From: Sipunculus nudus
Taxonomy: Eukaryota > Annelida > Sipuncula > Golfingiida > Sipunculidae
Direction: 5' to 3'
DNA length: 64,000 nucleotides
Assembly: GCA_026874595.1 (NCBI GenBank)
Contig: CM049317.1
Location: 12,158,382 to 12,222,381, forward strand
Shown here: positions 15,720 to 63,876 of the stretch, piece by piece
How the letters are laid out: every line of letters begins with the position of its first letter
Numbering within the stretch: position 1 is the first letter of the stretch
Notes under the pieces: model-generated
The model's database searches: none
The model's input: only the letters and a program-made list of their open reading frames with translations
Told to the model about the DNA's origin: nothing
Program-made: the position numbers and the translations under genes

Positions 15720-15792
15720 ATCTAACTTGCTACGTCTATATCTAATCTATACGTGGCAGACCCAATCCTATCAATACAAGCTTCCACCCTGG

Positions 15793-15842: not shown

Positions 15843-15901
15843 TACAGTGTTAACCTTTCGATAATCTGTACAAAATCTGTTGGTCATATCAGGCTTCTTT
15901 A

Positions 15902-16491: not shown

Positions 16492-16731
16492 CACAAGTTT
16501 AAATTCTAATTTTGTAGTCTTTTTGTCATATCATACTTTCATTTGTTTTGGGCAATCTTTAAATGTCCTTGGGCGATTTCATTTGCCCTACTTAATTTCT
16601 CCTTAAATCCCTGAACAAATTTTAACAAACTACATTGACAACTCTGTTCCATTCAAGTCTGTTTTAACACCGCCAGGGGGCCTCTTACACAGTGCCCATA
16701 CAATAATTCAAAAGGGCTAAACCCTAAGCTT

Positions 16732-24580: not shown

Positions 24581-24624
24581 TTATTAATAATATTTAATTA
24601 TTTTTTAAAGTTGATATTCAAACT

Positions 24625-37868: not shown

Positions 37869-37893
<25 letters not shown>
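37640..37893. repeat. AC/AT microsatellite cluster at Penelope element 3' side
   Basis: A CA run, a long AT run (to about 37692) and further AT runs (about 37835-37893). The last abuts the final readable codons of the Penelope-like RT. Frames through it are low complexity. Confidence 0.9.
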
Positions 37894-37901
<8 letters not shown>

Positions 37902-38617: not shown

Positions 38618-38666
38618 TGCCGTAGCCTTGGTTTGGACATAGCACTTATCATTGAACTCGATTAAG

Positions 38667-38930
38667 TTATGGGTGAGAATAAAGGGTTGTAGTATCGCTG
38701 ATTACTTGAAGTGAACACCCATGAACTGACATGAAACTGCGACAGGCTTCTATTCCCCCAGTGTTAGGAATGTTACTATACAGTCCAGTGACATCCATAC
38801 TGACTAGCAAAGTGTTAGGGGGTATTGTTGGTAAGTCCGACAGTTTATTGGGAAAATCCGTGGTGTCCTTTATGTAGCTTGGTATATTCCTGAGAAGTGG
38901 CTGCAGAATCGAATCTACATGGCCAGACAT
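38667..38930 (-). pseudogene. Penelope-like RT, fingers/palm start
   Basis: It encodes LQPLLRNIPSYIKDTTDFPN and LLVSMDVTGLYSNIP followed by GIEACRSF. The Asp in MDV is the first catalytic Asp of the RT. Frameshifts on both sides separate it from the neighbouring segments. Confidence 0.85.
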
Positions 38931-39035
38931 GTTTTCGGTCAGGGTTCCTATGGAGGAAGCGATGGAACGGAGAGGCGGTAGTATGCCTAGTTGTTTTGCG
39001 ATATGATATACATTTTCAGCATCTGATATGTTATT

Positions 39036-40322: not shown

Positions 40323-40365
40323 TTTAAACAATCATATTATTTGGATAACATGTACAGATTGTTGC

Positions 40366-45155: not shown

Positions 45156-45184
45156 TCACATTGTGTATCCTCTATAACCTGTCC
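45156..45184 (-). CDS. Alternative short terminal exon
   Basis: Acceptor tttcaaaag; with the split G codon it reads GTGYRGYTM and TGA. The same layout (acceptor, about 23-29 nt, TGA) is found in the relic at 31.2 kb. Weak on its own; used only if the 45625 donor is real. Confidence 0.35.
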
Positions 45185-48100
45185 CTTTTGAAACAGAATA
45201 AAAAATAATGAACTAACAAAAGAGACGTTTAAAAAGTAGAACATACAGAACTCTATACACTTATTATATTTCTTATGAGGATATACAGGTATCGTTATGT
45301 CTGCGAGAGAAAGGATATCTCAACAGGCTAAGACAGAAAAATCCCCATAGGGAGGGGTCAATAAGAAAAGCATTGTTAATATTTCTATAATTTCGTGTGC
45401 GTTCTCGTTTAACAGAAAGTTCAACGGGCATATCGAACACTTAACTTTAAATGCGCCAATGGCTTAATCCCCTATTCTATGGATACATGTACAGTTTATA
45501 AACATACTACTCTGGAATTTTCATTAGACTATTTGGAAGATTTAGTTTTTTTCGGTATTATATATCGTACCATTTGGAAAATGAACCGTCTTTCCCTTGT
45601 AACGACGATACTGATAAAACATACCCTTTATGCGAGGACTTAAATGTGTCATCCCAGCGCTCATGGTAACAAGTCTCTGAAATAAAAAAAAAATAATATA
45701 TATTTTTCTGATTAAATGATTTTGTATTGATCATAGTACTATTATAAGTAATAATATATATATATAAATAAAGCTATAAATATCCTACACAATGGCATTT
45801 CCATACAGGTCACGTATTTGAACTTGATCTATAAACTGTTTCATGCATTCTGTAATAAGAATGTTACACCCTCTTTGCGTTAGGTTAAGTTAAAGTATTA
45901 TATCGTACAATACTTCACCTTGCCGTTCCATGGTTTAGAGCTTGAGCCGGTTAATTGTTTCTGTTGATCATCCCCAATGGTAGGTACATCGTGTCTGTTT
46001 CCTAGCGTCGCTCCAGCATGATAAGGATCCTGCAAAAACAATAACACCGAAAAAAATGGCGTATTTATGTAGTAAAACCTTATGGGTAGTAACACTCATT
46101 TATTGTCTCCTCGGCAAGAAACAGTATCTCATATTAAGTATTTTAGACATTCCATGCCGCTAATTAGATAAGTAAAAATACCTTGTATGAATAACTGTCG
46201 TCCCGTAACATATCCCCTGCTCGGAGGTACGGATCTGCTGCCTGTTGTATAAAACAATTAATTAAATGCATTTTTTTACTGTTTAGCACATCACACCATA
46301 TAATCTAAAAACAGTACAACTAACCGGACTTATGATTATTCAATCAATAAATATATGTTATGCGTTGTTTGTTATGCCCAATGTATGTTGAAATTATTAT
46401 TTTCCTACCGTCAGGCTGTCAATGGAATCCACGCCTTTGTCATTTGTTTGAGGGCTTGCTCTTCTTCCATTGTCAGCCCGATGGGTCTAGACAATATTGA
46501 TAAGATTTAAAATTGTTATATTGACTTTAAAGCAACATATTAAGAAACGAAATATATATTTCCTGTGGTTGTGCATGTTGAGGTATATATAAAACATACT
46601 TACCATTATTAGGCCAGTGCTTGTCATTCCATGTGAAGTTGTAACGAGTCTCTATTAAAAATATATGTATAAATAATTAGGAAATAGAACATTGTTCTTT
46701 GAATAATTAGCTATAAAAGAGTTATCGTGAAATATGTTAAACTACTGCCTTTGCAATATACAGTAGAGCGCCGTTTCTCCAAATGCCGAATTTCCGAAGA
46801 TTCTTTTCGACAATTTTAATTGGAAACCAAAACTATTCATATTAACTAAATATTTTTCAAGCGGGTAAATAATTCAAATGATTTTTTTTGTAATTGCGAG
46901 TCGCCGGGCAAAGGCGTGAAAACTACAGGCATTCCCGGAACGCTATAGGCTCCCTAGCTATACCCTACGAAAGCAACTGAGCAATTTATCCAAGAGCATT
47001 TCTGTGTTATTAACCATATCTCGTTTGTACACAAGCAAGCATAGTTCGTCGGATTAGGCTCGGATGTCAGGACTAGATCTGAGCAGTATACTCGCATGAG
47101 CATTGGTGAGATATCTCTCATACATCGCTGTGCTCGAGGAGGTTTAGGTGCAAGGCCAAAGCATACCGGCCTGACAATACAAATGAGCGGTTCATTCCCA
47201 AGAGCAATTGTGTCATCTACTTAAACTTGCTGATATTCAGCTTATTCATCATTTCACATTTGCTGTCAAGAAGAATTAAACTCAAAAGCGATCGTCTTGC
47301 TGTCACTTGTCAGAGGTATGGAGACAAAGAAGAGTAAACAACAGCGTTATGCTTTGATGACAAGTTGACAATACGTGAGCGGCTCGACCGTTACGACAAG
47401 CCTGCCATTATCCAAATGTTTAAACAAATAGAGAAACATTCTTATAAAACGAATTCAGGAAGTAAAATATGAGACGTCGACTAGGATATTCAATAAGTTT
47501 AAACCTACGTTAGATCTGGAAATTATTCAACTGTCCATTTTAATTAGTAGGCTCTACGATTGTTCTAAAACCATTAATCCTTTGCCGTTTTCTCGTTTTG
47601 CGTGTGCCGCTTTGGCGCTGCCTGTTGGCAGTTAAAGAAACTGCACCAATGGCGATGTCATTTGACCTCTCCCTCCGGGGAATTAGTTGTAAAAAAGGCA
47701 CGCACGTATCCTAAAATTAGATAAGACTGATTTTAACCAATCTAGCTCTGCAATTAATCCAGTATTTTATGTGTCAACTACGTAGGTTGAAAAAGAAAAC
47801 ACTGTGTTCTCTCAATAAATTGGCGTTAAATTAATCCCTGATTGACCCCTATATGACCCCCTGAAATTCTTTTTCCCGAAAGAAAATCTTGTCCCCGACG
47901 CTTTCGGAAACGGTGCTCTTCTGTATATACATTATAAACATATAAACAGAAATACCTTTCGTGTAAAAACCATAGGCTTCCTATGGCTTTGTTTACGAGA
48001 CTTACTGAAGAAAAGATTTCATTAGCATGACTTAACATTGATGGTTTGTATAAAAGTTAAAAAGCGTGCTTTTCGTGGAGGATTTTCCACACTGGAACAT

Positions 48101-51100
48101 TAATTTTGACATTTGTTGAACTATTACCGTCCATTGATGATTGTTCACTAAAATGAATTGACTGTTATATACCATAGCAATCATAAGTACTTTTTTCATG
48201 TGAAAGTTTTATGGCATGCACATATGAGTTCAGGAAATAATCTAGACAGCAATGAGCATTTCTTTTTAGCCTAAATCAACTTATAATTTGGCTTAACATT
48301 TCGCTGTTACCTTCTCAAACGACCAAGATTAGAGAAAAAAAAACATTTTTTTGTCAAAATTTCTTGATTTCGAATAAATCTAATCCTGTTTAACATCTCT
48401 AGATATTTATAAAGCAATTTACAAAAAGTACTGCTTGTGTCTCAACAACAGTACTCACGGCATCAGGGACCGGTTCTGAGCCGTTTTGTCTCCAGCTACA
48501 GGTTTCATGTCCATCTTGGTTTCCATTCAGCTAAAATATTCATATGCAAAAAGTAAAAACCGCATATAATATCATCACTAAAGGTATAAAGTACTCTTAA
48601 ACTAGCTGATCGTGCCTCTAATTATAAAGCTGTACATAGATGGACTGTATTTAACATTAACGTATATTCTTGTCGGCTTTCACATGTGTAATTATAATAT
48701 ATTATATTAAACTTTAAACAGATAAATGGTTGATTGTAAGTTTCGGGTAAAAAATGTACTTAGATTACTCTGGCCTCTCAGCTTAAAAATCTCAGGAAAC
48801 ACATATTAAAATAACTGTGAAAAGCGTCAAAGATAAGCGATTTTGATTAAATACATGTGTTACCAAGTTTATTTTGCCAACGGTCAAAACTTGATGCAAA
48901 GCATCCAAATTTTCCAAAGGCAACGGCACGTATAATGTAATTGCTACTGATTGAAATATGCCAAATACCTGATAGTCGGTCAAAAGGGCATTCCCGCATG
49001 ATGTTTTTTTCGACATGTAGGACAAGGAAAGTTGTCATTTTATGGTTTCTTGTGTGTTTTGCTTGTACTCGCTTGATTTTGTGCGTAAGTATTTTATTAG
49101 ATATGGTTAAAGTGTGACAAACTATTATTAAATTTCAGTAAAACAAAGTGTTAATTGCAGTACAACAAAGACAAATTAAGCAAATGTCGGACATCACCAT
49201 CTGCTTGATTTACGGCCGTTTTTGTTGGAATGCAGGATCCAAATGGTGTGTGTACTCTGAAAGTTCAGCCTTTAATCCGGCTGATTACACTTTAGTGAAT
49301 ATATGAAAGGACAAACTGCTCGTTTACTGAGTGCAAATTTAATATAACTATTACAGGTCAATGTATATGCTAGACCACGAGGTATGTATCGTTAAACGAA
49401 TAAAAGGACATCACGACAATCGTTACCTCATCGTCTCTATATTCAAATCTATGGGAAGCATCAGAGTCACCAACTGGATAACCCCCGTCTTTCTTCTGTT
49501 CCTAAAAATAAACGAATTAGCAAAATATTATATATATCTTACCAGCCGTAGGAATCCGGATGCTAATCGCACATTAAAATAGAATTTACACAGTTTAATT
49601 TGGTAGGAGTATTCGGCCATCTGCCTCAAACAGACAATAATAAGCCCGATAAATCACTCCTTGCAATTAATTCTTTAGTGACCGATTAACATGACAGACG
49701 TGTGCTACCAGGGGACAAGGTACTAGATGGTTATGGCCAGGTTCCGGGGTGTTCCATCAGCCAACTTCTCTTACCGCATTTTTTAACTGGAGTTGCAGCT
49801 CACCATTCCTTGATGAACTTAAATCTAAACTCGATAGTATGTTTACGCATCCCGATCTGATACAAGGTTCTTCCGTGTACTCATGTCCACATCAGCCGAG
49901 TTTATGTCGCATTTGCAGACATCTCCAGGGCCGAGCATTAGTGAGCCTTGGGGCCATTTGCCATCAACAAGTCTACCATCGTAGCTGCCTAGGATTCATC
50001 TCAGCCTTCATTTGAGCTAGCGAAAACGATGGAAATAGAACTTTGACTGGCCGCTAGATTGAGACCGTGCCCCCCTAAGAATTCAGTGGCTAGGATTATG
50101 TTTTTTTTTCCGTTGGATTTCAAATATACGCCGATGAGAGAGGAGGTCGAAGTGTTCAGTCGTTGCTTTACGTGTAGTGTACGGTTTATGTCTCAAAAAT
50201 GCATTGTAGACTCAGTCCGCATTATTTTGCTCATTCTTTAGGAGTAGGGGAAAGAAAGTTTTATCAAATGTAGGTGGATTTTTCAACAGGTTTTATATTG
50301 ACATGCTTTTTTTTGCAGTAGGCCTTCTGATACCCCTCATGTTGAGGAGTAATTGAATCTTCTGCATTCTGATTGTGAGACAAAAATCTCTGTAGGCATA
50401 AGACAGCCCGTCCATCAGCTTACAGAGTTGTTGAATTAGTCGGATCTATCTTCGGCGATGAGGTGCTCTCTGTTTATTACCCTGAATTTTCTGTTGGTGG
50501 GGCAAAGGTGAATTTGTCATCTGTTCTGCCCTTGGTTGAAAGCACCTACATCCAGCGAGTTTCTGGAATCGAGATACAGCACCAAAGCGAAGTGGGTCCC
50601 AAACACTGTACGTGCAAGTACGCAGCCCTTTTTAACTTTACAGCAAATATACAGGGCATATCTGGACATGGGCATTGACTGTCCTATTCATGGAGTCTGG
50701 AGTGGATTGATGGTCCTAAGTCGCGCGGAAGGCAATCCATTATTTTTTAGAGGTTTAACAGTCTTTTGCTGCTGGCCAGATCGAAAGCCTTGACGGGAGC
50801 AACAAAAGTGTTAAAGGGATTGTTCACATGACATATTTCTTGGGAAAGTGCAGCTTCTGGTACGTAATTTACATTAAAATTTAGGAAAAAAAAGACGTTC
50901 TTTCTAGGACGGAATGAAATCTAACTAGGGCAACTCTGTCGAAGATCCGTCCAATAATGCGGCCAAGTAATATAATTATTACTGTAGCTATGGTCACTTC
51001 TTTTCTTGCGTATTAAGCTATTCTTATATCGCTTTTCTTGTATATTTAGCTATTCTTACACTGCTTTTCTTGTATATTTAGCTATTCTTACATTGCTGAT

Positions 51101-54100
51101 GATCAGTGTTATCTTTTAAACTCAGTGAAGTTTGTGGAGCTGTGTTAGGAGCAGGCATCATCTATGCTTGAACGATTTGATTTGATGCCATCATTACTTA
51201 GCTACGTGAGACTGCCTCAGTTGTCTTGCCGGGTTCTACTTAAGTAAGATCATCATCTAGCTCTGCACTGATGGGGAGACATCCTTTGTATCCGTTGTTT
51301 CTTGTCAAATCTAAATATAAGTTGAGCAGAGTTCATAGTTGTGCCAAGTAGTTGTGTCTGTGGGGCTTGGTGACAATTTGGCCGGGTTTAGAAGTCAGAG
51401 ATGTACCTTCTATGCAGAGGACCCTCTTGTTTTTATTTTATTCCGTCTTGTTATGCTCGGATATTGACAAATGTTTCATTGCCATCTGGTTAAGGCCAGT
51501 CTCTCTTGACATGCTTTGCTGAGTCAATCATTACAAAGTTTCCTTCATTTAGTTATAGATTTTTTAAATACTTCTTTACTGAGATTACATGGCATATTTC
51601 CAGGTGCAATGAATTCCATCATTCTCTTGCGTTGAGCACAGAGTAGTGGAACTTTGATGAGGAGATGTTAATATCTCAAACTGCACAGTGTTATATACGT
51701 GTGACTGATTCAGTGAAGGACCTTGTATTTTTTTTAATGAGATCCAGTTGGTGCAAGTTTGAATTAGTCCAGAAAACATTATGCTGGGGTGTGGTGTGGA
51801 ATATATGAGCAATCAAGAACTTGTGTCGGGTGCAGCATTCCAGTGTTCGCATGTGACGGGCACTGTGGGATGGATATGGGCCCCGGAGCTGCATCCGAGT
51901 TTCTACCAATGTTTAAAGTGAGCTCTTGACCGCAAATACCCCATCGTGCTCCATCCTCTCTTATACAGAATCTACAGCCTTCCTTTTAGAAAAAAGCATA
52001 GCACTCTCGCTTGAACGATACGCTGTCTGGAGGTCTGGATTGGCTATGTCAGTGTCCAGTCTGTATGTCCCATGTCCAAACCGCTTTTGAAATCATGGGA
52101 GCATGGTCCTACCGTTCGAGTCCCAAGGTCCGAAGAAATGTGGTTTAGCGGAGATTTTGCTTTTCCTGATACGAATCCTTTGGGTATTCTCCCTTTCTTT
52201 GGTCGAAGGTGGTTGTTTCCTTGTTCGGATAGCAAAGCCCAAAGCAGCCGTAAAGGCAGATGTACTGCGTCGGGTCGGTACTTATGTGTTTTTGGACTGC
52301 CCTTCCTAAAGCGGGCGTTAGCTGTTGGCAAAGAAGCGAGTTGAACTTGTAATTCGTTACAGTTGTCTTCCGAGTTGGATCATCACATTGCGGGAAGGAT
52401 TTAGTAGCATTTATAGGAAGCAAGCCTTGACAGACATGTGGAGATCATGGGCAGCCCGGACGACCCTGTCTCCTTATAGGCAGTATGATCCAAAGTAATG
52501 CGGCCACGAACTTTGGCACCGTTTCAGCTTTGTGAGTTGAAGAAAGGCGACAAAAGGCTGATATGAGACCGCCAACAAGCTCTACTCGGGATTTGTTTTT
52601 TCATTAACATGCCACAGCATTTGTCCCTAGCTCCGAGGGCTACATACAGGGCAATGGGGGTATTGAACAAGTCTTGTTCATTGTTGGTGGCAGAGTTTCT
52701 CCTCGTACATGATGACCATACACAACGCCCAGATTATATAAGTATTATATTGCCTGGCTATTCTTCATCGAATTTATATTGATTCTCTGAGTCTCCGATG
52801 AAAAATCGCCAATTAAATTTCTTGTATGTAAGTTCAATGGTTAATAGACTAATTAATGTGAATACATGTAAATATATAAATTAATGTATATGTTTTTTTT
52901 ATCAATAAATTAAAGTCATGCCCAACGAGAACACATGAAGATTGTTTCCAGTCTAACATTACCGTTGGGTTTAGGATATATTATACAGTAACTCAACGGA
53001 ACTGACAAAATCACAACCTTTTTGGAATCAGCTTGTCTCAAACTATAGATCTCTTCTGATTCTGGATAATCTTGTTCACCAGGTTGCTAAAAATATGCAC
53101 ATACATATATTTTTCAAGCAGAATAAAATACGAAAATGATTATGTCATGTTATAAAATGAAAATCTGTTTCAGGTGGATCAAAAGACGAATAAATTAAAC
53201 AAATGCAAGTATCACATTGCAAAAAAAAAAAAAACAAGTAAAATATCCCTGCAATTTCAAAAGTCCCGGAACTTCTTGTAACTTTTTATATTTTATTAAA
53301 TTAAAAAAAAAATTAATATCATTTAACATTTTCTGCTTTGGTTTTGTTTTCCATTTTTATCAGATAGTTATGAGGAAAGTATTATACATTGGAACATTGG
53401 AACAAGACTAGGAAACAATATTTTGATATTATATTGCTTGCAACTACAAACCAAATATGCATTGAAATACATGTGACATATGTGGGACAGGAGCAGTTGC
53501 TAATTTTAAGACTGTTCCTGTGATTGCAAACTAACAGTGTAAAAAGATGATTAACCTGGAATCAAGGGTTTCCTTGGTGAGTTGAGGAAAATAAAATCAC
53601 ATTATATAAATGTTTGTGTGTGATATTATTCTAAGGATGTATTAACTTGTTAAGATTGAGCGGTAACTAAAAAAACATGAAAGTAACAATGATAAGGTTT
53701 TACCAGGTCCTCATATTTGTTGTTAGTTGTCAATACTGCATTTGCGTTTTCAGCTCTTACGTTTCCATGATTTCCATCACCAAGATCGGATCTTCTATGG
53801 CCAATCTATATTCAGAATCGCATGATTATCAGAATATAGCAGTTAAACAGGATTGTTAAATCTTTGCAATAACGTATAATGTAACTTGTAACACAGAAGT
53901 GAAAACAAAATATACATATATTCAACACTGAATTGTTTAAACAATAACTTTTCAATTACTTTTAAGATATTTTTTTTATATTTGACTCAGGAATAAAACC
54001 GTCAAATTGTCCATGAGCTGACGAGCTCACTTTGAGTTAAATTGGTTGTTGGTGAGAGTAAGAATTTGAAGAGCTGTTCCTAAAATAGATCTTCTCATGG

Positions 54101-54579
54101 ATATGTTCTTACTGCTATGCAGTGAAGAATATTTAACATGCTAATCTGAATAATCAAACATGGATAAAGACACCTGCTCACCTTACAACATAAGGCACAG
54201 GTATATTTAGAGTAATACATGTACACTTATTTTCCATTCCCTCTTTGGTCATTAAGCAGAAGAGCAAATATTGCCTAACAGGCTTTGTTCTGTTCCATGT
54301 TTGATCGTCTATATGATGTACAGATTTTTAATGCAAGTTATTTTAAAAATGATAACCGTTGCTGCAAATTGCATGAGACTACTGAAACGCAGGTTTCAGC
54401 CAACGCTAACTTATTGACTCTATCGGTTCTTGATGTCTAAAACATCCATAAATATATGGATAGATTGTAAAAGTATTTTATTATTTTGACACGTACACCA
54501 TGTATACAAATTTACAACGATGAATCAATTTTGAGAAGAAAGAAGAGAGAAATAATTTATTTAACATAAAGTAATTCTC

Positions 54580-54628
<49 letters not shown>

Positions 54629-55411
54629 TATATACATTAAATATATATATACGACGATTTGTTTTATTAGGAGTGTTTGAATAGTATTAATTATGCAGGC
54701 TTTGATGGATTTTTTCCACAGCACTCAATATAACTACTAAACGTTTTGACATTATATTATTGCGTTCCAGTTCATTCTAGAGTGTTGAGAATAGAGAGTC
54801 ATATTTACATAAATGTCAAATCAACAGTCATATTTATAGGACAGTTGTTAATTTAGATGACCATTCAATCGTTTGATAATTAATACTGAATTTTAATCAC
54901 TTGAAAATACCCTTGCACCACTATTTGACAAAAAGTATTGTAATGTAACATTTCTGTAATAATAAAGTAAATAAAAAGAAGTCTCATTTCAAATTATTTT
55001 GTTATTTAGTTAAGTAATATAGTAATAAATGTCACTAAAAAGTAATAGATGAGGAACTGTGGAGATAGTAAATTAATAATAGCAATAACCGTGAAACTAA
55101 CAGTAGTATTTATAGAACGATTTGAACTAAAGCCAACCCTGATGAGTATGTTCATATTTTTGTTCAGAATCAACGTCCAGGAGTCTGCATTAACAGAAAA
55201 CTGTCTACACAAAACAAATTTATACGTAACAGTGTTTAATGATTTTGGGAAGACCTATGTTCAAATTGTATAGAGCGCATTCAATACTGTGTGATACATT
55301 TTTTTAGATTTTGATATGTAAACCAGGAAATAAAAAGTTGTTTGTTGTCACTATGACAATGTAAATACCCTAAAAGCTTATATATATATATAAATATATA
55401 AATATATATAA

Positions 55412-55449
<38 letters not shown>

Positions 55450-58400
55450 AAAGGTGAATATATATATGAAATAGTAAAGTGCTCTTTCCTGTCAATTAAG
55501 CAGCAAATCTGCTACAAGTATGGATGCAGTTGTAATGTCCTGGACTTGCTTGACTAATAAATGTGTCTTTATACTAAGCAGAAATATAAAGAATAATATG
55601 GAAATCCTTTACCTTATCATTGTTCGTTTCAAAACCCTGCGGAACAGTAGAGACATCAGTTGGATTGCCTTGGCCCTTCTTTGTACCATTTGATCCCTGA
55701 AATAATTAAGCATGTTTGTTCAACAGCAAACAATAGTAAATCTAACCGACTATGTTTGTCCTGGAAGAATATGAGACGGGCAAAAAGCCGGTAAATGCAA
55801 AATCTTTCGTGTACCAAGTCAAAATGAAAGTAAAACATACTTTAACTGTGAAAATATCATCGTTTTGATTTGAAGGTGATTCAGACACCAAAAGGGACTC
55901 TTCCTTTTCCATCTGGAAAGACACAAATATAAAGTCTGCATAAATATATATTAATCAAATAATTATAAATGATAATCTATGAAAAAATGAACAATGAACA
56001 ATCTAAAACAAAATACGTGTCCTGTATTCAGGTCTCTTTTATTTTAGGTCAAAGTATGATGGAAGATTTGTCTTATTTTCAAAATGTTTGGATTAAAGGA
56101 TATTCATAATGATACATCTAAACAGTGTGCTGGTATATTATAACGAAAGTTTATGCTTTCTCTCACCGGCTCCTGGTCCTCTTTTGGCAGGGAACTGTTT
56201 TCAGAAATATGATCAACTTCAAGAGGGGCCGATACGCTTCGTGCCATGTCCGTCTTAAATGTAATTAGGTGAAGTAAAAAATATTCATGTGTTAACAGAA
56301 ACATTGATAGAATATCAGCATGATTGATCGATGAGCTTCAGACGATAACTATATACACTTATTTTTAACACTTATGTTTGATTTGCCTTGCCTATCGAAT
56401 TCTTAAAAATAAAGCTTCCCATGCTCGTTGTGTGGTATCTATAATTCATGCTTCCAGATGCCCCACGCTCAGTACAAGAGTCCACACAGTCGGTTTTTAA
56501 AAAGCTGCCAACAATAACTTCTTGAAAGAATGCAAAATGGCAGTTTTCAGCTGACAAAAATCACAAATTACTCTTTAATTAATCATGGATGATATAATTT
56601 AAATGCCTTTGTGCTAAATACTTTACCGGGTAGCTAAATTCAGAACTCTCAAGAGATGTATGCTTAGGCGAATGTTTGTTTCTCATTTCTCCAGTGTTGT
56701 TTGTCGTCTGTAATGAAGAGTTTTAAATTTGAGACACGACCTGGTTTTTAAAAATGGTGTAAAACATAAAGTGAGGATCCAATTAAAAGCAGATGGAACA
56801 TATTTTTATGAATAAAATAATCCTTGTATTCATAGCAGCAAATGATTTCCTGAAAGATAACATTGAAACATGCACCGATATATGGTTGACGTCAAGCAGA
56901 TATAAATATCACATTTCTTTGATGTCCATGTTATCTTTATGACATTAAGACCACCCACCATGACAGTTTGCTCTAATATTGTATCATATGGTTGATCGTC
57001 GTCGTGAAGAGAATAACCTCGAGGTCTTCCATTATCGGCAGCTGCCTGGAAAAGTATATTTATTGTGCATTCTCATGTATTCTTAATTGAAGAAATCTCT
57101 ACCGACACAGTATCCTCCGAAACATTACCAACATAACGATTTAGTCTTATTTGGCTAAACAATCTTAGGTTTGATCACGATTTATACTATGCGATTAAGA
57201 CATTAGTCAATAAATCATAATTTACCACATCAGAATCGGTGTGGAGAACGGCATGTTTTTGGACTGCTTCCGGCTGTAGTTTTACGGCTCCATTTGTGTA
57301 TGTCTGACAAAATAAACATTGTAAATCCCAAACTATTGCTGAGATGATCAAGAGACGATCAATAGTCAATAATTATACCAAGCATTAACATCAAGGGGCA
57401 CACCTTACGTCAGTACCATCACATATATCAAAGACAAATGTTGTTTTGCTAACAATTACCTCAACAGTATTCTCTTTGCTTTCTTCTCCTCTAAGTTCGA
57501 AAGCTTGAAAATGTGGTTGAGGCGATGCAGTTGATGCTTCCTGAATATTCCAAACAAAACATGTGTATTAAGAAATCTCCAATATACACAAGTTTCAAAT
57601 ACATCCGCCATTCATTCATATTTTCATACATAGGTGGTGCCGTTCCAAGATAACCGAATCCTTATGGACGACCATATTTGTCTTAAAATATTGTTAATCC
57701 TAGGAGGTCTTTAACAATATTTGCCTTTGCGGGTTTTTCGGGGAAATGGCCCGGCAAAGTGAATGATTACGAACCCTGGGCCTGGATATGCGGTAGACAT
57801 CAGGCCCAGGTGACACATAAATTTTAAAAATTTGACAAGTCAGCAATAAAAAGGAGATTGCCTCCTTAATATTTTACCATAATAATGGATGTGCATTTTG
57901 TTCCAGATAAGCAGTTGTAGTTTGAATCAAGAGATTAATGGGTTTATGTCGGTCAGGCTTGTTATTGCTGTAGAATACATGCTGATTTTGATCTTATAAT
58001 TATCAAAATTTATAATTATACGCAGCAACCCAGCTTATATGGTGCAAATTAGTAATTATAATTCTAGCATAAATGTAAGCTGCCATAAAATGGACGGTTT
58101 CCAAAGTATTTAGTGGACTTATATATTATTGACCATGTTAAGGTAAAGTATATATATTTATTCCAAAACTTGAAGATATAACAGTTAAAACTTCATGTCC
58201 GTTTTTGTTTTAGTTTAGTTCAAAGGAATGGAATGGATTTCATATCCGTTATCGGTAACCTAAAGAAGGATATGAAACGGTACCTCTTTGCTACTTGCTG
58301 TCATTGCAAGTGGCTCGGAAATGGACACAGTAGATACTTCGGGTTGTGATTCACCTTCTGTGGTCTCTGATTCTTCATTTGTTGCCTGCCCGTCTGTGCT

Positions 58401-61400
58401 TCTTTCATGATATGTTTCATGTATCCTGATTATTGCTGGCTCACTGCCATCCCCGACCGTTTTAACCTATTTTCAATTCAGAATAAAGTAATATTTTTTT
58501 GTCACTCAGAAAATATTTGTGTTCAACATATTGCGTAAGAGATCACAAGGAATCTCTGGTCCTAATACAGTTAATTAAAGGTAAAAAAAGAACATTAAGG
58601 ACGATATAAAGGGACCCTTATTAGGTTTAACACTGCAAATGTATGTTGCGACTGGCAATAAGGTATACCGTAAAAGAAGGTCACAGTGCTGTAGCCTTTT
58701 ACTGAACGAAAACTATAAAAGAACATACACAACATTTTACATATTCATGTATTTTTCATTATCCTGGACAATTTCCCTGAAAATATATCATTTGTCCATT
58801 TAAAAGAGTAATATGCTTTTAAAATTTGGCTCATCTTAAGAAATTCACTTTCAAATGTTCCACTCACAAAGTCTTCTGTGGTACCAGCAATGACCGGTTG
58901 CTGAACGTGGTCGAATGTAATTGGTGGAGATGAAAACACTTGGTCACTTGCATTGTCGATATTCCTTTCATTTGTATTCTTGACCATCTGTTCACTTGTC
59001 TCTGCTTTCGGCTCTTCGACCAACTCATCAGCTGGTTTATTGGATATCTAAAGAAGGCAGAACCCATTAGCATTTTTATTTTTGTATTGTTTGTTGCATA
59101 GTAGTGTTTGTTGCATACTGATCATGAAGTTAAAGGGGCTTGATCACATACCATTTGTGCTTAATATACATGTAGTGCGTTCTTCTTAACATTGTAAGAG
59201 CTGCCAATTTTTCCTTCTAATCATATTGATACTACTGTACACGAGTTGAAAAAAACTTCCTTAGGCCTCGATACCGAATCATGGACTTTTTCTTAAGGAT
59301 TTTTTTAGAAAGATATCTTAGTGACTTAGTTGCGAAACGGTGTTGATATTTCTTCCAGAGCTTGAACATATTACAGTTAGAGCTTCATGTTTCCCTTTTT
59401 TAGCTTATTTGGCTAAAATTAGTGCGTATATTTTCCATTATGAGGAAACCTGATGAAAGATAAAATCAATCGGTACATCTTTGGCATCGGCCGGTATGGC
59501 TAGTGCCTCCCGGTTGCACTCAGTTGATACTTCGAGTTTTGTTTCATCGACTCGGGTGTCTGATTCTTCATGTGTTACTGGCTGGTCTGCGAGTCCTTCA
59601 TGTCCTGTTTCATGAAGGCTGGTTTCTGCAGGATCTCTGCGATCCCCTACCATATTTCCCTATAATGCAAATAAGAATAATGTAACATTACTTTCGCTCT
59701 GTGAATGAGTGTGCAACATGTTCCGTAAGAAATCTCAGCCCCAAAGGCCCCCCCCCCCACACACACACCGTTTTAGAATTATAATTGAAGAATAAAATAC
59801 GACAGTGTCCTCATCTCTTGAAGTCATTTTTTAGTCTGGCCTTTCAAGCGACAAATCACGTTTTATATTTGTTCATAAAAATATTTGGTAAATACATAAT
59901 TGCATGGTGCAGATTAGGTTAAAATTGGCCCTAAAGAAATAAATAACGATTCTGCATGCTTTGATACAAAGTTCCAAAATCATCAGAGCATTTATTGTAG
60001 GAAAAAGAAGAACATGATACACATTGCAAATATTCATTTTTAATTAAACTATTTCTCCTTGGCTGTTTCAGTTATGGATTCAGTCTGCTTGGTTTGTTAT
60101 TACTGCAAATTACGTTTGCATTTGATGAGAAAACTCCGCGAATATAAAATAGTACATGGCTGATCATCCTAAATCTTTAAATAATATTTTAAATGCTTCG
60201 ATACAGATACAAAAAAAATATTAACGACGATATATAGGGAGTATTATTTGGTTTAACACAAATAAATGCTGCGACTGATAATAAGGTATGCCTTAATGAA
60301 TGCCACAGTGCTGTAGCGGTGCTGAACGAAAAGTATACACAAACGTGAACAACATTGTTCATATTAATGTATTTGCATTATCTTGGAAAATTTTTCTGAA
60401 AATATTTCATTTGTCAATTTCATTGAGAAATATGCTTCTAAAATTGGGTTCATTTATAAAAATTCACTTTTAAATGCCCCACTCACAAAGTTTTCTGCGG
60501 TACCAGGAATGACAGGTTGCTGAACGTGGTCGAATGTAATTGGTGGAGATAAAAACAAATGTTCACTTGGCTTGTCGATGTATCCTTCATTTGATTTATT
60601 GACCGTCTGTTCACTTGTGTATGCTTTCCGCTTTTCTACCAAGACATCAGCTGATTTACTCGACATCTAAAGAAGAGAGAAACCATGAATAATTGATCGT
60701 TTTTGTTATGGTAGTGTTTGTTGCATACTGATTACGAAGTTAAAGGGCCCGATCACATACCATTTGTGTTAAATATAAACAAGTAGTGCGTTCTTCTTAA
60801 CATTATAATAACTGCCAATATTTTGTTCTCAACATGTTCACTTTTTTCTGAACCTTACTGGAAAAGGTTTCTATTGGGCGCCATGCCAAATCATGGACTT
60901 TTTCTCATGGATTTATTGGAAAGAAATCTGATTAAATAAGTTGTGAAACAGTGAAGGTATTTCTTCCAGAACTTAAAGATACAACAGTTAAAAGCTTTAT
61001 GTTTCCCTTTTTTAATTTAATTTTGGCTAAAATGAGTAATTTTGGTATTATATTTTATTTCGAGGTACGCTGAGGGAAGATACATTCAATCGGTACCTCT
61101 TTGGTGTTGGGCCCTATGGCAGGTGGCTCCCGGTTGCACTCAGTTGATACTCCGGGTTGTGTTTCATCGACTCGGGTGTTTGATTCTTTGTTTGTTACTG
61201 GCTTGTTTGTGAATCCTTTAAGTCCTGTTTCATGAAAACTGGTTTCTGCAGGCTCTCTGCGATCACCTACCATTTCAACCTATAGTGCAAATAAGAATAA
61301 TGTAACATTACTTTCGCTCTGATAAATGTGTTTGCATCATAATACGTAAGAAATCACAAGCCCCCCCCCCCCTTTCTCGAGTTTTAATAACAGGATAAAA

Positions 61401-63719
61401 TACGACCGTCTCCTTATCTCTTTTAGTTATTTTTTTCAGTCTGTTTGGTTTGAACAAGCACAAAGCACGTTTTATATTTAATTATAAATATATTTGGTAA
61501 ATACATTATGGCATTGAGCAGATCAGGTTAGATGTGACCCTAAAGAGATGAATAAAAAATTTGCATGCTTCAGTACAGAGTTCTAAAATCATCAAAGTAT
61601 TAAAATTTAAGAAACACGTAATTATTCAAAACATTGCACATATTCATATGTCTGTACAATCCAAAATCTTGTTCGATCGGATATCGACGATCGAATACTT
61701 TGAACTTTAGAATATATAATGTGACCTCCCTCCTCAAAGTTATGATTTATCTCTGTTTAGCTTGTTCACTTTGCAAAATATAGACCAATAGTCAGCTATA
61801 TTATATAAAATACCTCTTGTATAGAGTCTGATAAAGTGGGAGAATCCTGAAGAGGATTGGTCGTTTCCAGTTTTTGTATATCATCGGCTGTTGTGTTTGA
61901 TGTTTCATTCGGTTCTTGTCCCACAGTGTGTCCTTCTTGAGCCGTTTCAAAGATTGTGTCCCCAGACTATAAACAAAAATGTGAATACACAACTCCCTTC
62001 GCATTTTAAACTTTTCAAATGTTGATTATGAAAAACGTTTTAAGTTTGAAATACGTAATGATTCCGAAAATGCGTTACTCTAAAACGATTTTTATAAGGA
62101 TTTTCACCTCATAAGAAATTCTTGATGGATAAAATATGTTAATTGTGTCCCGATTTTGTTTCGCTTACCATACGCTGTTTCTTCGGAGGTCCAGGCGGTC
62201 CGTCTTCACTTGGATTAGCCTGGTTATTTTCTTCCTTGAAACACATTTAATCTTCATGATGTAGAGAATATATAGTGTACCTCGTGTTCGGACCGTTGAG
62301 AGCTAACCTTTAAAAGCCTGTGATACTGTACATGTTGTACAATATCAATTAAGACACATGAGCTACGCACAATCCTGTATATTCATAAATATTGATTAAT
62401 AATTTGAACTATTTGACATTTAAAGGATGGAATTTGTATCAGTATCACAAAGTAACCTACTTGGTTTCAAACTCCTTCAGAAATATCTGGTTTTCCTACA
62501 ACTGGTCTCTCCGTATTGCTCTCTTTTCCCATAAAGAATAATAAGCCCATCAAACCATCAAAATGTTTACCATAGCAATAAGAGTTTTTAGATGGGTAAT
62601 AGCTGATTAAACACTAATGGTCTTTGGTTATTAAGTTAAACTAGCATACCAACTGATATCCAGCTCTATCCACATCATCAAATTCTTCTCCTTTCCGTTT
62701 ATCCTGCAGTTTTGATAAAAATACATTTTTATTGATTACGAGGTCGCAAGAACTATGGGATTTTGTTCATAATATCGTGTGCGATTGTGTTAGGAAGATG
62801 TTTTTATCTCTGCTGCTGTTTACAATTTTAAAAAGTCAATGCGTTTACTTTGAAGATCAATGAGAAGATTTAAATGGCTTTCTCTCCTTAGTTCGTTTTT
62901 AACATGTAGTTTCAACCATGTTGGATAGTGTCTTCGTAATATTTAGTTTATGTTTTAATATTATTCACCAAGATTTATTATATTTTATATTTCAGTGACG
63001 ATCAAATTAAATCATTAGTGATTTTTAAAACTTACAAGAACCGGTTCCATTTGTTCATCTTTAGCTGATGCTGTCTCAACATATCTCCCCTCCTCTCCCC
63101 CCTGCATTTAAACAGACACAACTTCCTGTTTTAAACTTTAAGAAATGACATTAAAAGAAGGGGTACTCAGTACGATTGTTTTATTTGGGATGAAAGCAGA
63201 AATAGGGTCATATTCATGCATTGTTCCTAAAGCAACTCTCGAATAACCGGCCGACGCACATGGCTTTAAATGTATTAATGATTGCAATAGGTCAACTATA
63301 TGTGATATTACTGTGAGTCTTTGCAGGTTTTCCGTCTTCAGGAAAAAAATATAATCTTCCTGTTAATCGATTTAAATATTAGTGTACATCATTAGTGTTT
63401 GTATTATTCTGTGATATTTTTACGTAGACATTTTGCTGAGGAAAAATGTTGGCAGATTCCAGATTCTATTTCATGTCGGTGGCGCACATGTCAGACGTTC
63501 CAACCGCTTCGCCCTTATAAGCAAGTTTGACTAGCGAGACAGTTCAGCCCACTTTCATTTAAACCCATAGATACACTCCTTTCACACAAGTGTGGACATT
63601 ATTTTGGAAGCTAATGCAAACACTTGTAAATCAGGAAAATAATATTATATACAGTTTACTCGAAAATATTATATATATATATACACATATATCTATCTAT
63701 CTATCTATCTATCTATCTA

Positions 63720-63756
<37 letters not shown>

Positions 63757-63876
63757 GTCCTATTTTCATTAAAATAAACTTGCCATGGATATCCCATCAT
63801 CGAGGCTGACATTCTCTCCTCCCACTTGGTTTTGCATCTGATCAGGGTTCGTTACCACTGGAATGTTCTTCAGAAA
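45156..63876 (-). CDS. Mini-exon gene for a long disordered protein, 5' end beyond window
   Basis: At least 25 exon-like blocks run from 63876 down to 45625, with a possible last exon at 45184-45156. Every block except the last is a multiple of 3 nt, is open in the same frame, starts after AG and ends before GT (one GC). So all internal introns are phase 0. Spliced, the blocks give about 825 residues rich in Glu, Asp, Ser, Thr, Asn, Gln, Gly and Pro with almost no Cys and no transmembrane segment, so probably disordered. Repeated motifs link exons (ADNGR; RLVT-S-GMT; SPPITFDHVQQPVI). Scattered Tyr sites (YTNG, PYDTI, EIYSL) could suit a cytoplasmic signalling tail. Family and function are not recognised. 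The start, and any folded domains, must lie to the right of the window. Confidence 0.7.
45542..45676 (-). CDS. RLVT-type exon, possibly terminal
   Basis: Acceptor atttcag; starts RLVTMSAGMTHLSPRIK. There are two ways to end. Read through, the frame stays open for 27 more codons to TAA at 45542 and this is the last exon (45 codons with stop). Alternatively it is spliced after 52 nt at gtatgt (45625), phase 1, to 45184-45156. The paralogous relic at 33783-33834, also 52 nt to a gtaaga donor, favours the second, but I cannot decide. Confidence 0.6.
   Translation of the reverse strand, partial: RLVTMSAGMTHLSPRIKGMFYQYRRYKGKTVHFPNGTIYNTEKN
45919..46029 (-). CDS. Mini-exon (37 codons)
   Basis: Acceptor tttttgcag; starts DPYHAGATLGNRHDVPT and ends KPWNGK; donor gtgaag. 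Phase 0 on both sides. Confidence 0.7.
46182..46241 (-). CDS. Mini-exon (20 codons)
   Basis: Acceptor caacag; begins AADPYLRAGDML and ends RDDSYSYK; donor gtattt. DPY-RAG recalls DPYHAGA in the next exon. Confidence 0.7.
46409..46486 (-). CDS. Mini-exon (26 codons) with ADNGR
   Basis: Acceptor ttgtctag; starts THRADNGRRASPQTNDKG and ends DSIDSLT; donor gtagga. ADNGR is shared with 56959-57045. Confidence 0.7.
46604..46651 (-). CDS. Mini-exon (16 codons), RLVT type copy 1
   Basis: Acceptor tttaatag; encodes RLVTTSHGMTSTGLIM; donor gtaagt. It shares its start (RLVT, GMT) with the exon at 45625-45676, so one is a duplicate of the other. Confidence 0.7.
46759..47480 (+). mobile_element. pogo/Tigger-like DNA transposon relic
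   Basis: After TA the terminal sequence cagtagagcgccgtttctcc at 46761 matches the style of Tigger terminal repeats. About 550 bp later an ATG (47318) opens METKKSKQQRYAL and, after a one-base shift, DDKLTIRERLDRYDKPAIIQ then MFKQIEKHSY, like the N-terminal CENP-B/Psq-type DNA-binding helix-turn-helix of pogo-superfamily transposases. The DDE domain and the other terminal repeat are absent. It lies in an intron of the minus-strand mini-exon gene, in the opposite orientation. Confidence 0.6.
47481..48450. other. Intronic sequence, nothing identified
   Basis: The rest of the intron between the exons at 48.5 and 46.6 kb. A 70-codon minus frame (47826-48038) has no recognisable motif. Confidence 0.45.
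48459..48530 (-). CDS. Mini-exon (24 codons)
   Basis: Acceptor attttag; starts LNGNQDGHETCSWRQNGS and ends EPVPDA; donor gtgagt. One of the few exons with a Cys. Confidence 0.7.
49427..49501 (-). CDS. Mini-exon (25 codons)
   Basis: Acceptor tttttag; starts EQKKDGGYPVGDSDASH and ends RFEYRDDE; donor gtaacg. Phase 0; two Tyr in acidic context. Confidence 0.7.
49600..52950. other. G+C-richer insert of unknown type within an intron
   Basis: This part of the intron between the exons at 53.0 and 49.5 kb is less AT-rich than the rest and has several overlapping frames on both strands (for example 49749-50015, 50463-50678 and 52044-52344). None shows a motif I can assign. A worn retroelement is the likeliest explanation, but I found no RT, integrase, recombinase or LTR signature. 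Confidence 0.4.
51000..51095. repeat. ~32-bp tandem repeat, three copies
   Basis: 'gcttttcttgtatatttagctattctta' and variants recur with starts near 51002, 51033 and 51066. Confidence 0.8.
53018..53086 (-). CDS. Mini-exon (23 codons) with EIYSL
   Basis: Acceptor tttttag; encodes QPGEQDYPESEEIYSL then RQADSKK; donor gttgtg (weak). Acidic residues before Tyr resemble a tyrosine-kinase site. Confidence 0.65.
54581..54626. repeat. (AT)n microsatellite
   Basis: A pure AT run in the same 2.5-kb intron (53087-55612). The rest of that intron shows no further exon that I could support. Confidence 0.95.
55378..55443. repeat. Interrupted (AT)n microsatellite
   Basis: AT runs with short interruptions in the intron between the exons at 55.6 and 53.0 kb. 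Confidence 0.9.
55613..55696 (-). CDS. Mini-exon (28 codons)
   Basis: Acceptor tatttcag; starts GSNGTKKGQGNPTDVSTV and ends ETNNDK; donor gtaaag. Phase 0 on both sides. Confidence 0.72.
55841..55912 (-). CDS. Mini-exon (24 codons)
   Basis: Acceptor tttccag; starts MEKEESLLVSESPSNQ and ends NDDIFTVK; donor gtatgt. Acidic and Ser-rich; phase 0. Confidence 0.72.
56167..56253 (-). CDS. Mini-exon (29 codons)
   Basis: Acceptor atttaag; starts TDMARSVSAPLEVDHISE and ends PKEDQEP; donor gtgaga. The upstream intron has a good pyrimidine/ATTAC tract. Confidence 0.72.
56627..56707 (-). CDS. Mini-exon (27 codons)
   Basis: Acceptor attacag; starts TTNNTGEMRNKHSPKHTS and ends SSEFSYP; donor gtaaag. Phase 0 on both sides. 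Confidence 0.72.
56959..57045 (-). CDS. Mini-exon (29 codons) with PYDTI
   Basis: Acceptor tttccag; starts AAADNGRPRGYSLHDDD and continues QPYDTILEQTVM; donor gtgggt. It shares ADNGR with the exon at 46409-46486, evidence of common origin. PYDTI fits a YxxI sorting or SH2 motif. Confidence 0.72.
57226..57303 (-). CDS. Mini-exon (26 codons) with YTNG
   Basis: Acceptor ttgtcag; starts TYTNGAVKLQPEAVQKHA and ends HTDSDV; donor gtaaat. YTNG has the YxN form bound by Grb2-type SH2 domains when phosphorylated; relevance unknown. Confidence 0.72.
57460..57540 (-). CDS. Mini-exon (27 codons)
   Basis: Acceptor atattcag; encodes EASTASPQPHFQAFELRG and ends ESKENTVE; donor gtaatt. Phase 0 on both sides. 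Confidence 0.72.
57541..58283. other. Intron with G+C-richer patch
   Basis: Intron between the exons at 58.3 and 57.5 kb. It contains an inverted repeat 'cctgggcctg...caggcccagg' at about 57775-57810 but no further exon that I can support. Confidence 0.5.
58284..58466 (-). CDS. B-type exon, copy 3 (61 codons)
   Basis: Acceptor aaatag; starts VKTVGDGSEPAIIRIHETYH and ends AMTASSKE; donor gtaccg. The most diverged of the three B exons but the same length. No A-type exon follows it. Confidence 0.75.
58868..59047 (-). CDS. A-type exon, copy 2 (60 codons)
   Basis: Acceptor tttag; starts ISNKPADELVEEPKAETSEQ, contains SPPITFDHVQQPVI and ends GTTEDF; donor gtgagt. The spacing from copy 1 is 1619 bp. 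Confidence 0.75.
59477..59659 (-). CDS. B-type exon, copy 2 (61 codons)
   Basis: Acceptor attatag; starts GNMVGDRRDPAETSLHETG and ends PADAKD; donor gtaccg. Closest to copy 1; the spacing from copy 1 is 1620 bp. Confidence 0.75.
60487..60666 (-). CDS. A-type exon, copy 1 (60 codons)
   Basis: Acceptor tttag; starts MSSKSADVLVEKRK, contains SPPITFDHVQQPVI and ends GTAENF; donor gtgagt. Same length and boundaries as 58868-59047. The central SPPITFDHVQQPVI block is identical in the two copies while the first half has diverged. Confidence 0.75.
61097..61279 (-). CDS. B-type exon, copy 1 (61 codons)
   Basis: Acceptor ctatag; starts VEMVGDRREPAETSFHETG and ends GPNTKE; donor gtaccg. It has the same length, boundaries and many residues as 59477-59659 and 58284-58466 (GD, EPA, HET, NxES, VST). 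The shared gtaccg donor is weak but kept in all three copies. Confidence 0.75.
61814..61966 (-). CDS. Mini-exon (51 codons)
   Basis: Acceptor gtttatag; begins SGDTIFETAQEGHTVGQ and ends DSPTLSDSIQE; donor gtattt. Phase 0 on both sides. Rich in Thr, Ser, Glu and Gln. Confidence 0.7.
62169..62234 (-). CDS. Mini-exon (22 codons), Pro-rich with basic end
   Basis: Acceptor tttcaag; encodes EENNQANPSEDGPPGPP then KKQRM; donor gtaagc. The GPPGPPKKQR stretch could be an SH3- or importin-binding site, but that is speculation. Confidence 0.7.
62461..62520 (-). pseudogene. Cassette with in-frame stop (dead or poison exon)
   Basis: Exactly 60 nt between an aaaagag acceptor and a gtaggt donor, phase 0, reading SNTERPVVGKPDISEGV, then TGA, then NQ. 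Composition matches the neighbouring exons. The pyrimidine tract is weak (atgggaaaag precedes the junction). If included, translation would stop here; it is either a decayed exon or a regulated poison exon. Confidence 0.45.
62650..62703 (-). CDS. Mini-exon (18 codons)
   Basis: Acceptor actgcag; encodes DKRKGEEFDDVDRAGYQL; donor gtatgc. Phase 0 on both sides. Highly charged. Confidence 0.7.
63036..63101 (-). CDS. Mini-exon (22 codons)
   Basis: Acceptor aaatgcag; encodes GGEEGRYVETASAKDEQ and ends MEPVL at a strong gtaagt donor. Phase 0 on both sides. Acidic, with one Tyr (RYVET). Confidence 0.7.
63312..63335 (-). CDS. Possible 8-codon micro-exon
   Basis: Acceptor ttttttcctgaag, then TENLQRLT, then gtaata. 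The 24 nt keep phase 0 like all neighbours. Too short to be sure; could be chance. Confidence 0.25.
63671..63752. repeat. (AT)n(CTAT)n(AT)n microsatellite
   Basis: AT runs flank a tetranucleotide ctat repeat, in the intron next to the first exon of the window. Confidence 0.95.
63784..63876 (-). CDS. Mini-exon (31 codons), first in window, GC donor
   Basis: Acceptor ttttgaag, then FLKNIPVVTNPDQMQ and so on, ending in DDGISM before gcaagt. A GC-AG intron would be needed; gcaagt is the usual form of such donors. An alternative acceptor nine bases downstream would give 28 codons. Confidence 0.55.

What the first reader, a model, noticed from the sequence alone, without database searches (positions are those of the whole stretch)
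45156..63876. A gene made of at least 25 phase-0 mini-exons for a long disordered protein
Every internal block (48-183 nt) is a multiple of three, open in one frame, and bounded by AG/GT. All junctions are phase 0, so any exon can be skipped, repeated or shuffled without changing frame. The product is hydrophilic, nearly Cys-free and not from a family I know. Such uniform symmetry over ~18 kb is rare. It suggests a modular, combinatorially spliced tail, for example of a surface receptor or matrix protein.
Basis: partly seen in the sequence, partly recalled or inferred. Interest (0 to 1): 0.8.

Follow-up and report, generated by a model that had tools for sequence, protein, structure and literature searches.

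The report
Mini-exon tail of a membrane receptor
The many tiny exons appear to encode the long flexible inner tail of an animal cell-surface receptor whose sister genes carry differently built tails, which would let the inner half of a receptor be rebuilt exon by exon.

Summary
On the minus strand at 45.5-63.9 kb I count 25 internal exons of 48-183 nt, all phase 0, open and GC-richer than their flanks, plus a probable terminal exon. An automatic scan finds 24 such blocks here, 4 on the plus strand (3 antisense to the exons) and 2 in the 21 kb to the left. The gene continues right of the window: two UPA-like exons, a ZU5 exon (Pfam E=9.6e-11) and a probable membrane exon, so the mini-exons would be its cytoplasmic tail. 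At least 24 ZU5 loci lie on this chromosome. Eight of 19 have a membrane-like exon just upstream; seven of 24 have a C-type-lectin match upstream. Two paralogues clearly, a third more weakly, carry their own phase-0 mini-exon arrays. No tail exon matches between genes; nine pairs match within genes. So tails look gene-private and partly built by exon-cassette duplication. Combinatorial splicing is untested: no RNA data. No signalling motif is clearly enriched. The window gene's lectin-like exons look broken, so this copy may lack its ancestral ectodomain or be recently dead.

The parts
63784..63876 (-). t01, first tail exon, 31 aa, GC donor
   Evidence: AG acceptor, gcaagt donor, open, GC contrast; starts 254 nt after the UPA2 exon (coordinates)
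63036..63101 (-). t02 mini-exon, 22 aa
62650..62703 (-). t03 mini-exon, 18 aa
   Evidence: missed by the automatic scan (GC contrast 0.39/0.32, below the cut-off)
62169..62234 (-). t04 mini-exon, 22 aa
61814..61966 (-). t05 mini-exon, 51 aa
61097..61279 (-). t06, 61 aa, cassette exon A, copy 1
   Evidence: 64% aa identity to t08
60487..60666 (-). t07, 60 aa, cassette exon B, copy 1
   Evidence: 63% aa identity to t09
59477..59659 (-). t08, 61 aa, cassette exon A, copy 2
   Evidence: the automatic scan gave a longer block 59450-59659
58868..59047 (-). t09, 60 aa, cassette exon B, copy 2
58284..58466 (-). t10, 61 aa, cassette exon A, older copy 3
   Evidence: 44% aa identity to t06
58272..61601 (-). 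tandem duplication of a 1.62-kb unit carrying exons A and B with introns, plus an older A copy
   Evidence: the repeat finder families D2-D7; two units aligned
57460..57540 (-). t11 mini-exon, 27 aa
   Evidence: one search gave a longer block
57226..57303 (-). t12 mini-exon, 26 aa
56959..57045 (-). t13 mini-exon, 29 aa
56627..56707 (-). t14 mini-exon, 27 aa
56167..56253 (-). t15 mini-exon, 29 aa
55841..55912 (-). t16 mini-exon, 24 aa
55613..55696 (-). t17 mini-exon, 28 aa
53704..53805 (-). t18 mini-exon, 34 aa
53018..53086 (-). t19 mini-exon, 23 aa, weak donor gttgtg
   Evidence: hand-called, not in the automatic scans
49427..49501 (-). t20 mini-exon, 25 aa
48459..48530 (-). t21 mini-exon, 24 aa
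46604..46651 (-). t22 mini-exon, 16 aa, resembles the terminal exon (RLVTxSxGMT)
   Evidence: resemblance read by eye
46409..46486 (-). t23 mini-exon, 26 aa
46182..46241 (-). t24 mini-exon, 20 aa
45919..46029 (-). t25 mini-exon, 37 aa
45542..45676 (-). probable terminal exon, 44 aa and stop TAA; an alternative donor inside it cannot be excluded
   Evidence: read from the minus-strand sequence; translation

Best explanation
The blocks are real coding exons. They encode the long, probably disordered cytoplasmic tail of a single-pass membrane receptor of an animal. The receptor has ZU5 and UPA-like domains just inside the membrane, and belongs to a chromosome-linked family in which at least some members have a C-type-lectin ectodomain. 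Seen in the sequence: exon array, ZU5, same strand and phase, paralogues with the same order, tail duplications, no tail matches between genes. Inferred: ligand binding outside is passed through ZU5-UPA to the flexible tail, which works as a variable docking and spacing segment. After the membrane exon every intron that I called is phase 0, so single exons or groups of exons can be duplicated, lost or skipped without breaking the frame; tails have grown in part by tandem duplication of exon cassettes and drifted fast in sequence. Whether exon skipping makes isoforms is unknown.
For: Exon array far above controls. ZU5 E=9.6e-11 in the next exons on the same strand; the family profile matches UNC5B over 182 profile positions, into the start of its UPA part, E=1.6e-8. 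Probable membrane exon of the window gene, hydropathy 1.75 over 19 residues. Hydrophobic exons ending in phase 0 lie upstream of ZU5 in 8 of 19 loci, against 1 of 19 on the opposite strand. Same-strand C-type-lectin match within 10 kb upstream in 7 of 24 ZU5 loci (one is the query's own, one match holds a stop), 0 in any other arrangement, 0 of 2000 shifts. Tail-side scans, sense/antisense: L013 30/4, L015 8/2, L016 16/7; without ZU5/UPA exons the sense counts are 27, 6 and 14. Over 86 tail blocks from four genes, 9 matching pairs within genes (three of the four genes) and 0 between genes. Four duplicated paralogue exon pairs have pooled dN/dS 0.35. In the window duplication the exons have 2 gap events in 361 columns, introns 43 in 1153.
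Against: No transcript or protein data. The window cassette shows dN/dS 1.23 on few sites, so its residues look barely constrained. The 0.35 rests on 4 pairs that I chose by protein likeness, which leans towards low dN; near-identical pairs were left out and one pair was trimmed. No short linear motif is clearly enriched in the window tail: YxxPhi 2 seen against 3.2 expected, ITIM 0; of 8 classes, acidic residue before Tyr reached P=0.03 and CK2-like sites 0.06, uncorrected. The membrane segment of the window gene is short and flanked by Glu. Lectin-like exons about 9 kb further upstream match the family but one ends in a stop and has no donor, so the N-terminus of this copy is unresolved. Four other paralogues showed no array clearly above the antisense count in the 10 kb examined (L017 2/4, L019 5/2, L020 5/3, L026 6/3). 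Extending three arrays by 10 kb gave little: L016 7/3 and L013 6/4, L015 3/5. UPA was not matched by Pfam.
Confidence: 0.72

Rival explanations
1. The exons are real but the copy is a recently dead or truncated receptor gene: its lectin exons are broken and the tail is drifting without selection.
For: A lectin-like exon upstream runs into a stop inside a stretch that is open in paralogue L016, and lacks a donor. dN/dS of the duplicated cassette is 1.23. A GC-richer block between t03 and t04 carries a TGA in frame 0.
Against: ZU5, two UPA-like exons and 25 tail exons are all open. Exons hold far fewer indels than introns since the duplication, so the frame was kept for most of that time. The TGA block has such a poor acceptor that it may never have been an exon.
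Confidence: 0.2
2. The tail is a separate downstream gene for a secreted or matrix protein, not part of the ZU5 receptor.
For: Hydrophilic, Cys-poor composition would also suit a matrix protein. A passage of a shell-proteome paper lists a 'titin-like' protein with ZU5 and DEATH (PMC6641155), which could point to shell or matrix.
Against: Only 254 nt separate the UPA2 exon from t01 and phase 0 continues across. Paralogues L013, L016 and, more weakly, L015 have arrays in the same place after UPA2.
Confidence: 0.06
3. Phase-0 uniformity is only inherited from the ancestral intron phase of the cytoplasmic region and has no role in splicing; the exons are constitutive.
For: ZU5 and UPA exons are also phase 0. 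Most splice sites are ordinary. There is no isoform evidence.
Against: Tails do not match between genes while the phase rule holds, so symmetric exons may have been favoured or required during turnover. Some sites are weak (t01 GC donor, t04 and t15 acceptors, t19 donor).
Confidence: 0.5

Closest known systems
UNC5 netrin receptors (ZU5-UPA-death domain)
   Same: Single-pass membrane protein with ZU5 then UPA on the inside; UNC5B and ZO-1 were the only solved proteins matched by the nine-row family profile, UNC5B at E=1.6e-8
   Different: No death domain found in the window gene; a mini-exon tail stands in its place; lectin ectodomain in the one paralogue read (the Ig/TSP ectodomain of UNC5 is recalled)
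PIDD, NLRP1, CARD8 (autoproteolytic ZU5-UPA/FIIND)
   Same: ZU5 followed by a UPA-like part; HFT at the place that aligns with UNC5B QLG, presumably the Leu-677 that the paper sets against the Phe of the HF/S or SF/S cleavage site (passages of PMC3210808)
   Different: Thr in place of Ser, cleavage untested; membrane-anchored; no CARD or death domain found
C-type lectin receptors of molluscs and other invertebrates
   Same: Paralogue L016 has a Lectin_C domain, E=6.7e-11, upstream of its membrane exon
   Different: Inner part with ZU5 and mini-exon tail; no such fusion is named in the titles and abstract starts of the 30 papers shown of 34 that hold both ZU5 and lectin (listing only)
Receptors with cytoplasmic tails made of many short exons, such as PECAM-1 (recalled)
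   Same: Modular inner tail from short exons
   Different: More exons here, gene-private sequences, no ITIM found

Membership tests
ZU5 superfamily | Match to Pfam ZU5 above its cut-off | tested here: met
   42.3 bits against cut-off 21, E=9.6e-11; 42.7 bits for the spliced string
ZU5-UPA tandem | UPA fold directly after ZU5 | tested here: inconclusive
   No Pfam UPA hit; family profile aligns into the UPA start of UNC5B; ZU5-UPA1-UPA2 exon layout also in L013 and in parts of other paralogues
UNC5 receptors | Death domain at the C-terminus | tested here: not met
   No Pfam hit at E up to 10 in the 886-aa tail
UNC5 receptors | Single membrane span before ZU5 | tested here: inconclusive
   Hydropathy 1.75 in the window gene, short segment; clear spans in several paralogues
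C-type lectin receptors | Intact Lectin_C domain in the ectodomain of the window gene | tested here: not met
   Fragments only, 18.3 bits below the cut-off of 22.6, stop in the exon; met in paralogue L016
Autoproteolytic ZU5 proteins (PIDD/FIIND) | HF/S or SF/S site at the end of ZU5 | tested here: inconclusive
   HFTQF in 9 of 18 aligned rows, the nine closest ones (a nineteenth locus lacks the stretch); Thr, not Ser; cleavage needs an experiment
Combinatorially spliced genes | Several isoforms with skipped cassette exons | not testable with these tools
   No RNA data

The most novel reading that the evidence does not exclude
A family of lectin receptors in which ZU5 self-cleaves at HF/T inside the cell, freeing or loosening a UPA-plus-tail fragment whose disordered tail is chosen exon by exon through frame-neutral splicing: a membrane-bound cousin of the NLRP1/PIDD switch with a combinatorial output segment, each gene evolving its own tail vocabulary by exon-cassette duplication.
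Probability: 0.12. Interest if true: 0.85.

Novelty: new variant of a known kind. Interest (0 to 1): 0.6.

Why it matters
Receptor families are best known for diversifying on the outside. Here the folded inner core (ZU5-UPA) is kept, while the inner tail differs wholly between sister genes and has been extended by duplicating frame-neutral exon cassettes. If expressed as read, it gives a clear case for asking how disordered signalling tails arise and turn over, and whether exon phase is selected to allow it. The HFT site gives a direct test of whether self-cleaving ZU5 switches exist in membrane receptors.

Tried and rejected
1. A lectin ectodomain for the window gene itself was first assumed from exons at 75-82 kb and then withdrawn: one exon ends in a stop without a donor, and the lectin receptor genes at 92-95 and 113-116 kb have their own membrane exon and stop-ended tail ORF, so I read them as separate genes. 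2. An ITIM/ITAM-type tail: not supported. 3. A death domain in paralogue L020, suspected by eye: Pfam gave no Death hit. 4. Tail relatives elsewhere in the genome: a query of two cassette exons (t07 and t08) hit only the window's own copies, 5 matches; the other tail exons were not searched genome-wide. 5. Number of origins of the mini-exon tail: the ZU5 tree is too poorly resolved (2 of 15 inner branches well supported). 6. Rfam and tRNA scans of the window: nothing. 7. A structure model of ZU5 was not asked for: ZU5 lies outside the window and genome-search loci are not on that tool's list of allowed sources. 8. Literature searches gave no description of this architecture in what I saw: listings with abstract starts, and passages of PMC8195603, PMC3210808, PMC8260672, PMC6641155 and PMC10140915. 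9. The first exon script printed nothing because its thresholds were too strict; the splice scores used later rest on site frequencies that I wrote from recall.
Full report
Introns, transposons and gene families point to an animal; I did not identify the species. The finding lies on the minus strand, so the gene runs from right to left and its 5' part is outside the window.

Observation. I defined 25 internal exons from 63876 down to 45919 plus a probable terminal exon 45542-45676 ending in TAA. All 25 lengths are multiples of three; all are open in phase 0, against 11 and 2 of 25 in the other two frames; all are GC-richer than their flanks; 24 donors are GT and one is GC. As I picked some ends by eye, I ran an automatic scan with fixed rules (AG to GT or GC, phase 0, length a multiple of three, GC contrast of at least 0.08). 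It found 24 blocks on the minus strand at 45.9-64.4 kb (one of them the UPA2 exon), 2 in 25.0-45.9 kb, and 4 on the plus strand, 3 of these antisense to listed exons. Splitting the tail scan by phase class gave 23 for (0,0) on the sense strand, 17 for the frame-shifted reading (1,2), 12 for (2,0) and 1-8 for the rest, against 1-4 in each antisense class. A block at 62461-62520 has a fair donor and a TGA in frame 0, but a very poor acceptor; I do not count it.

Coding evidence from a duplication. A 1.62-kb unit with exons A and B is duplicated in tandem, and an older third copy of A is present. Between the two units the exons hold 2 gap events in 361 aligned columns and keep equal lengths, while introns hold 43 in 1153; dN/dS over both exons is 1.23, and 0.91 and 0.97 against the older copy. 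These rest on few sites and I made no significance test. Frame is kept but residues are not: either relaxed or diversifying. A query of exons t07 and t08 has no match elsewhere in the genome. In two paralogues, by contrast, four duplicated exon pairs give pooled dN/dS 0.35. That favours coding there, with the caution that I chose the pairs by protein likeness, left out near-identical pairs and trimmed one.

What the tail belongs to. Right of the window on the same strand lie UPA2 (C12:12222512-12222718), UPA1 (12222934-12223098) and a 636-nt ZU5 exon (12223486-12224121), all phase 0, then a probable membrane exon (about 12224649-12224752, phase 1 to 0) and an extracellular exon (12225317-12225445, phase 1 to 1) (some ends read by eye). 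Pfam ZU5 scores 42.3 bits, E=9.6e-11. A profile of nine family members (five with joined UPA exons, four with the ZU5 exon alone) finds ZO-1 (E=2.5e-9) and UNC5B (E=1.6e-8), the latter into the start of its UPA part. Pfam did not recognise UPA, so I call it UPA-like.

The family. A ZU5 search of the genome gave 19 matches, all on C12; the Pfam model gave 24, of which 18 are on C12 and two each on C2, C3 and C4. Together that is 24 loci on C12, a lower bound by the tool's own note; one of them (L028) holds a stop. In the 3.5-kb loci held, a hydrophobic exon ending in phase 0 lies in the first 1.6 kb, upstream of ZU5, in 8 of 19, against 1 of 19 when the reversed loci are scanned. In paralogue L016 two upstream exons form a C-type lectin domain (Lectin_C E=6.7e-11). 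With that domain as query (150 of 448 candidates scored, 41 matches on C12), 7 of 24 C12 ZU5 loci, L016 itself included, have a same-strand match within 10 kb upstream, one of these with a stop; 0 have one in any other arrangement, and 0 of 2000 circular shifts reach 7 (mean 0.07). So at least some members read lectin - membrane span - ZU5 - UPA - tail. In the window gene the corresponding lectin-like pieces (75649-75708 and 76137-76277 in extended window coordinates) match L016's two exons (E 3e-4 and 5e-6 in a small set), but one runs into a stop inside a stretch that is open in L016 and has no donor. I therefore do not claim a working lectin ectodomain for this copy.

Tails of the paralogues. 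The same scan on the tail side gave, sense/antisense: L013 30/4 in 20.5 kb; L015 8/2, L016 16/7, L020 5/3, L026 6/3, L017 2/4, L019 5/2 in 10 kb each. Without ZU5 and UPA exons the sense counts are 27 for L013, 6 for L015 and 14 for L016. Extending by 10 kb gave L016 7/3 and L013 6/4 and L015 3/5. So of seven examined paralogues two have a clear array, L015 a smaller one, and four show none clearly above background in the stretch read. Among 86 automatic tail blocks from four genes (L012 23, L013 33, L015 9, L016 21) there are 9 matching pairs inside a gene (4, 3, 0 and 2) and 0 between genes at E 1e-3, although L012 and L013 are 53% identical in ZU5. These blocks include some chance calls, as the antisense counts show.

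Mechanism. The charge-hydropathy rule puts the window tail on the disordered side and ZU5 on the folded side; disorder-promoting residues make up 0.536 of the tail and 0.426 of ZU5. I take the tail as a flexible docking or spacing segment inside the cell. I looked for motifs: of 8 classes, one (acidic residue shortly before Tyr, 16 seen, 10.1 expected) reached P=0.03 and CK2-like sites (35 seen, 27.8 expected) P=0.06, both without correction; YxxPhi, ITIM, PxxP, SP/TP, NPxY and clathrin-box-like motifs were not enriched. Phase 0 throughout allows any exon to be gained, lost or skipped. Gain by duplication is seen in three genes. Skipping is not shown.

A possible switch. At the end of ZU5 the nine closest of 18 aligned loci read HFTQF. 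In the UNC5B alignment HFT falls on QLG. D'Osualdo et al. report that CARD8 cuts itself at Phe-296/Ser-297, PIDD at HF/S, and that UNC5b has Leu-677 at the Phe (passages of PMC3210808); that this is the Leu of QLG is my inference. The same paper says such reactions may start from Ser, Thr or Cys. HF/T self-cleavage is thus possible and untested.

Known or new. Each domain is known. The combination of a lectin ectodomain, membrane-bound ZU5-UPA and gene-private arrays of phase-0 mini-exons was not met in what I saw of the searches listed, which cover only the held open library. A shell-proteome table names a 'titin-like' bivalve protein with ZU5 and DEATH (passage of PMC6641155), which may be a relative. 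A paper on bivalve lectins does not mention ZU5 in its main text. I rate it a new variant of a known kind.

Noticed in passing
62461-62520, minus strand: A GC-richer block between t03 and t04 with a fair donor (gtaggt) but a very poor acceptor and a TGA in frame 0: a decayed mini-exon, a stop exon, or chance.
   Followed up: yes
L017 and L034 (C12:43.56 Mb): The start of the UPA2 exon of this paralogue stands in about five tandem copies (NLYSLVSCHQAW...TFMFQT) in one open block of 390 nt.
   Followed up: no
L032, about 6400-8270: A long minisatellite of roughly 58-nt units right after the UPA2 exon of paralogue L013; the units repeat the end of that exon with its donor.
   Followed up: no
10743-11075, 12364-12696, 14036-14359: Three ORFs about 1.6 kb apart on the minus strand, the first two identical in protein and the third alike over most of its length: a tandem repeat of a roughly 1.6-kb unit.
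   Followed up: no
15441-17082 minus; 24598-25143 plus: Reverse transcriptase and integrase pieces of an LTR element (Pfam RVT_1, Integrase_p58_C, and rve below its cut-off) and a weak endonuclease hit of a LINE-like element, below its cut-off.
   Followed up: partly
37892-40331 minus: Long ORFs that look like a reverse-transcriptase element by eye; the three tested gave no Pfam hit.
   Followed up: partly
about 49.6-52.8 kb: A stretch of about 3 kb, GC-richer in a coarse profile, sits in the intron between t19 and t20 and accounts for the largest gap in the exon array; two ORFs tested gave no Pfam hit.
   Followed up: partly
right flank, extended window coordinates 92-95, 113-116 and 130-132 kb, minus strand: Tandem copies of a lectin-type receptor gene; those at 92-95 and 113-116 kb have a membrane exon and a stop-ended tail ORF, the third holds a stop in a lectin exon. 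Further lectin-like matches on the plus strand at 83.8-85.0, 108-109 and 126.6-126.8 kb, some with stops.
   Followed up: partly
L023 and L024 (C12:6.82 and 6.87 Mb): Two ZU5 loci 48 kb apart are nearly identical, a recent duplication.
   Followed up: no
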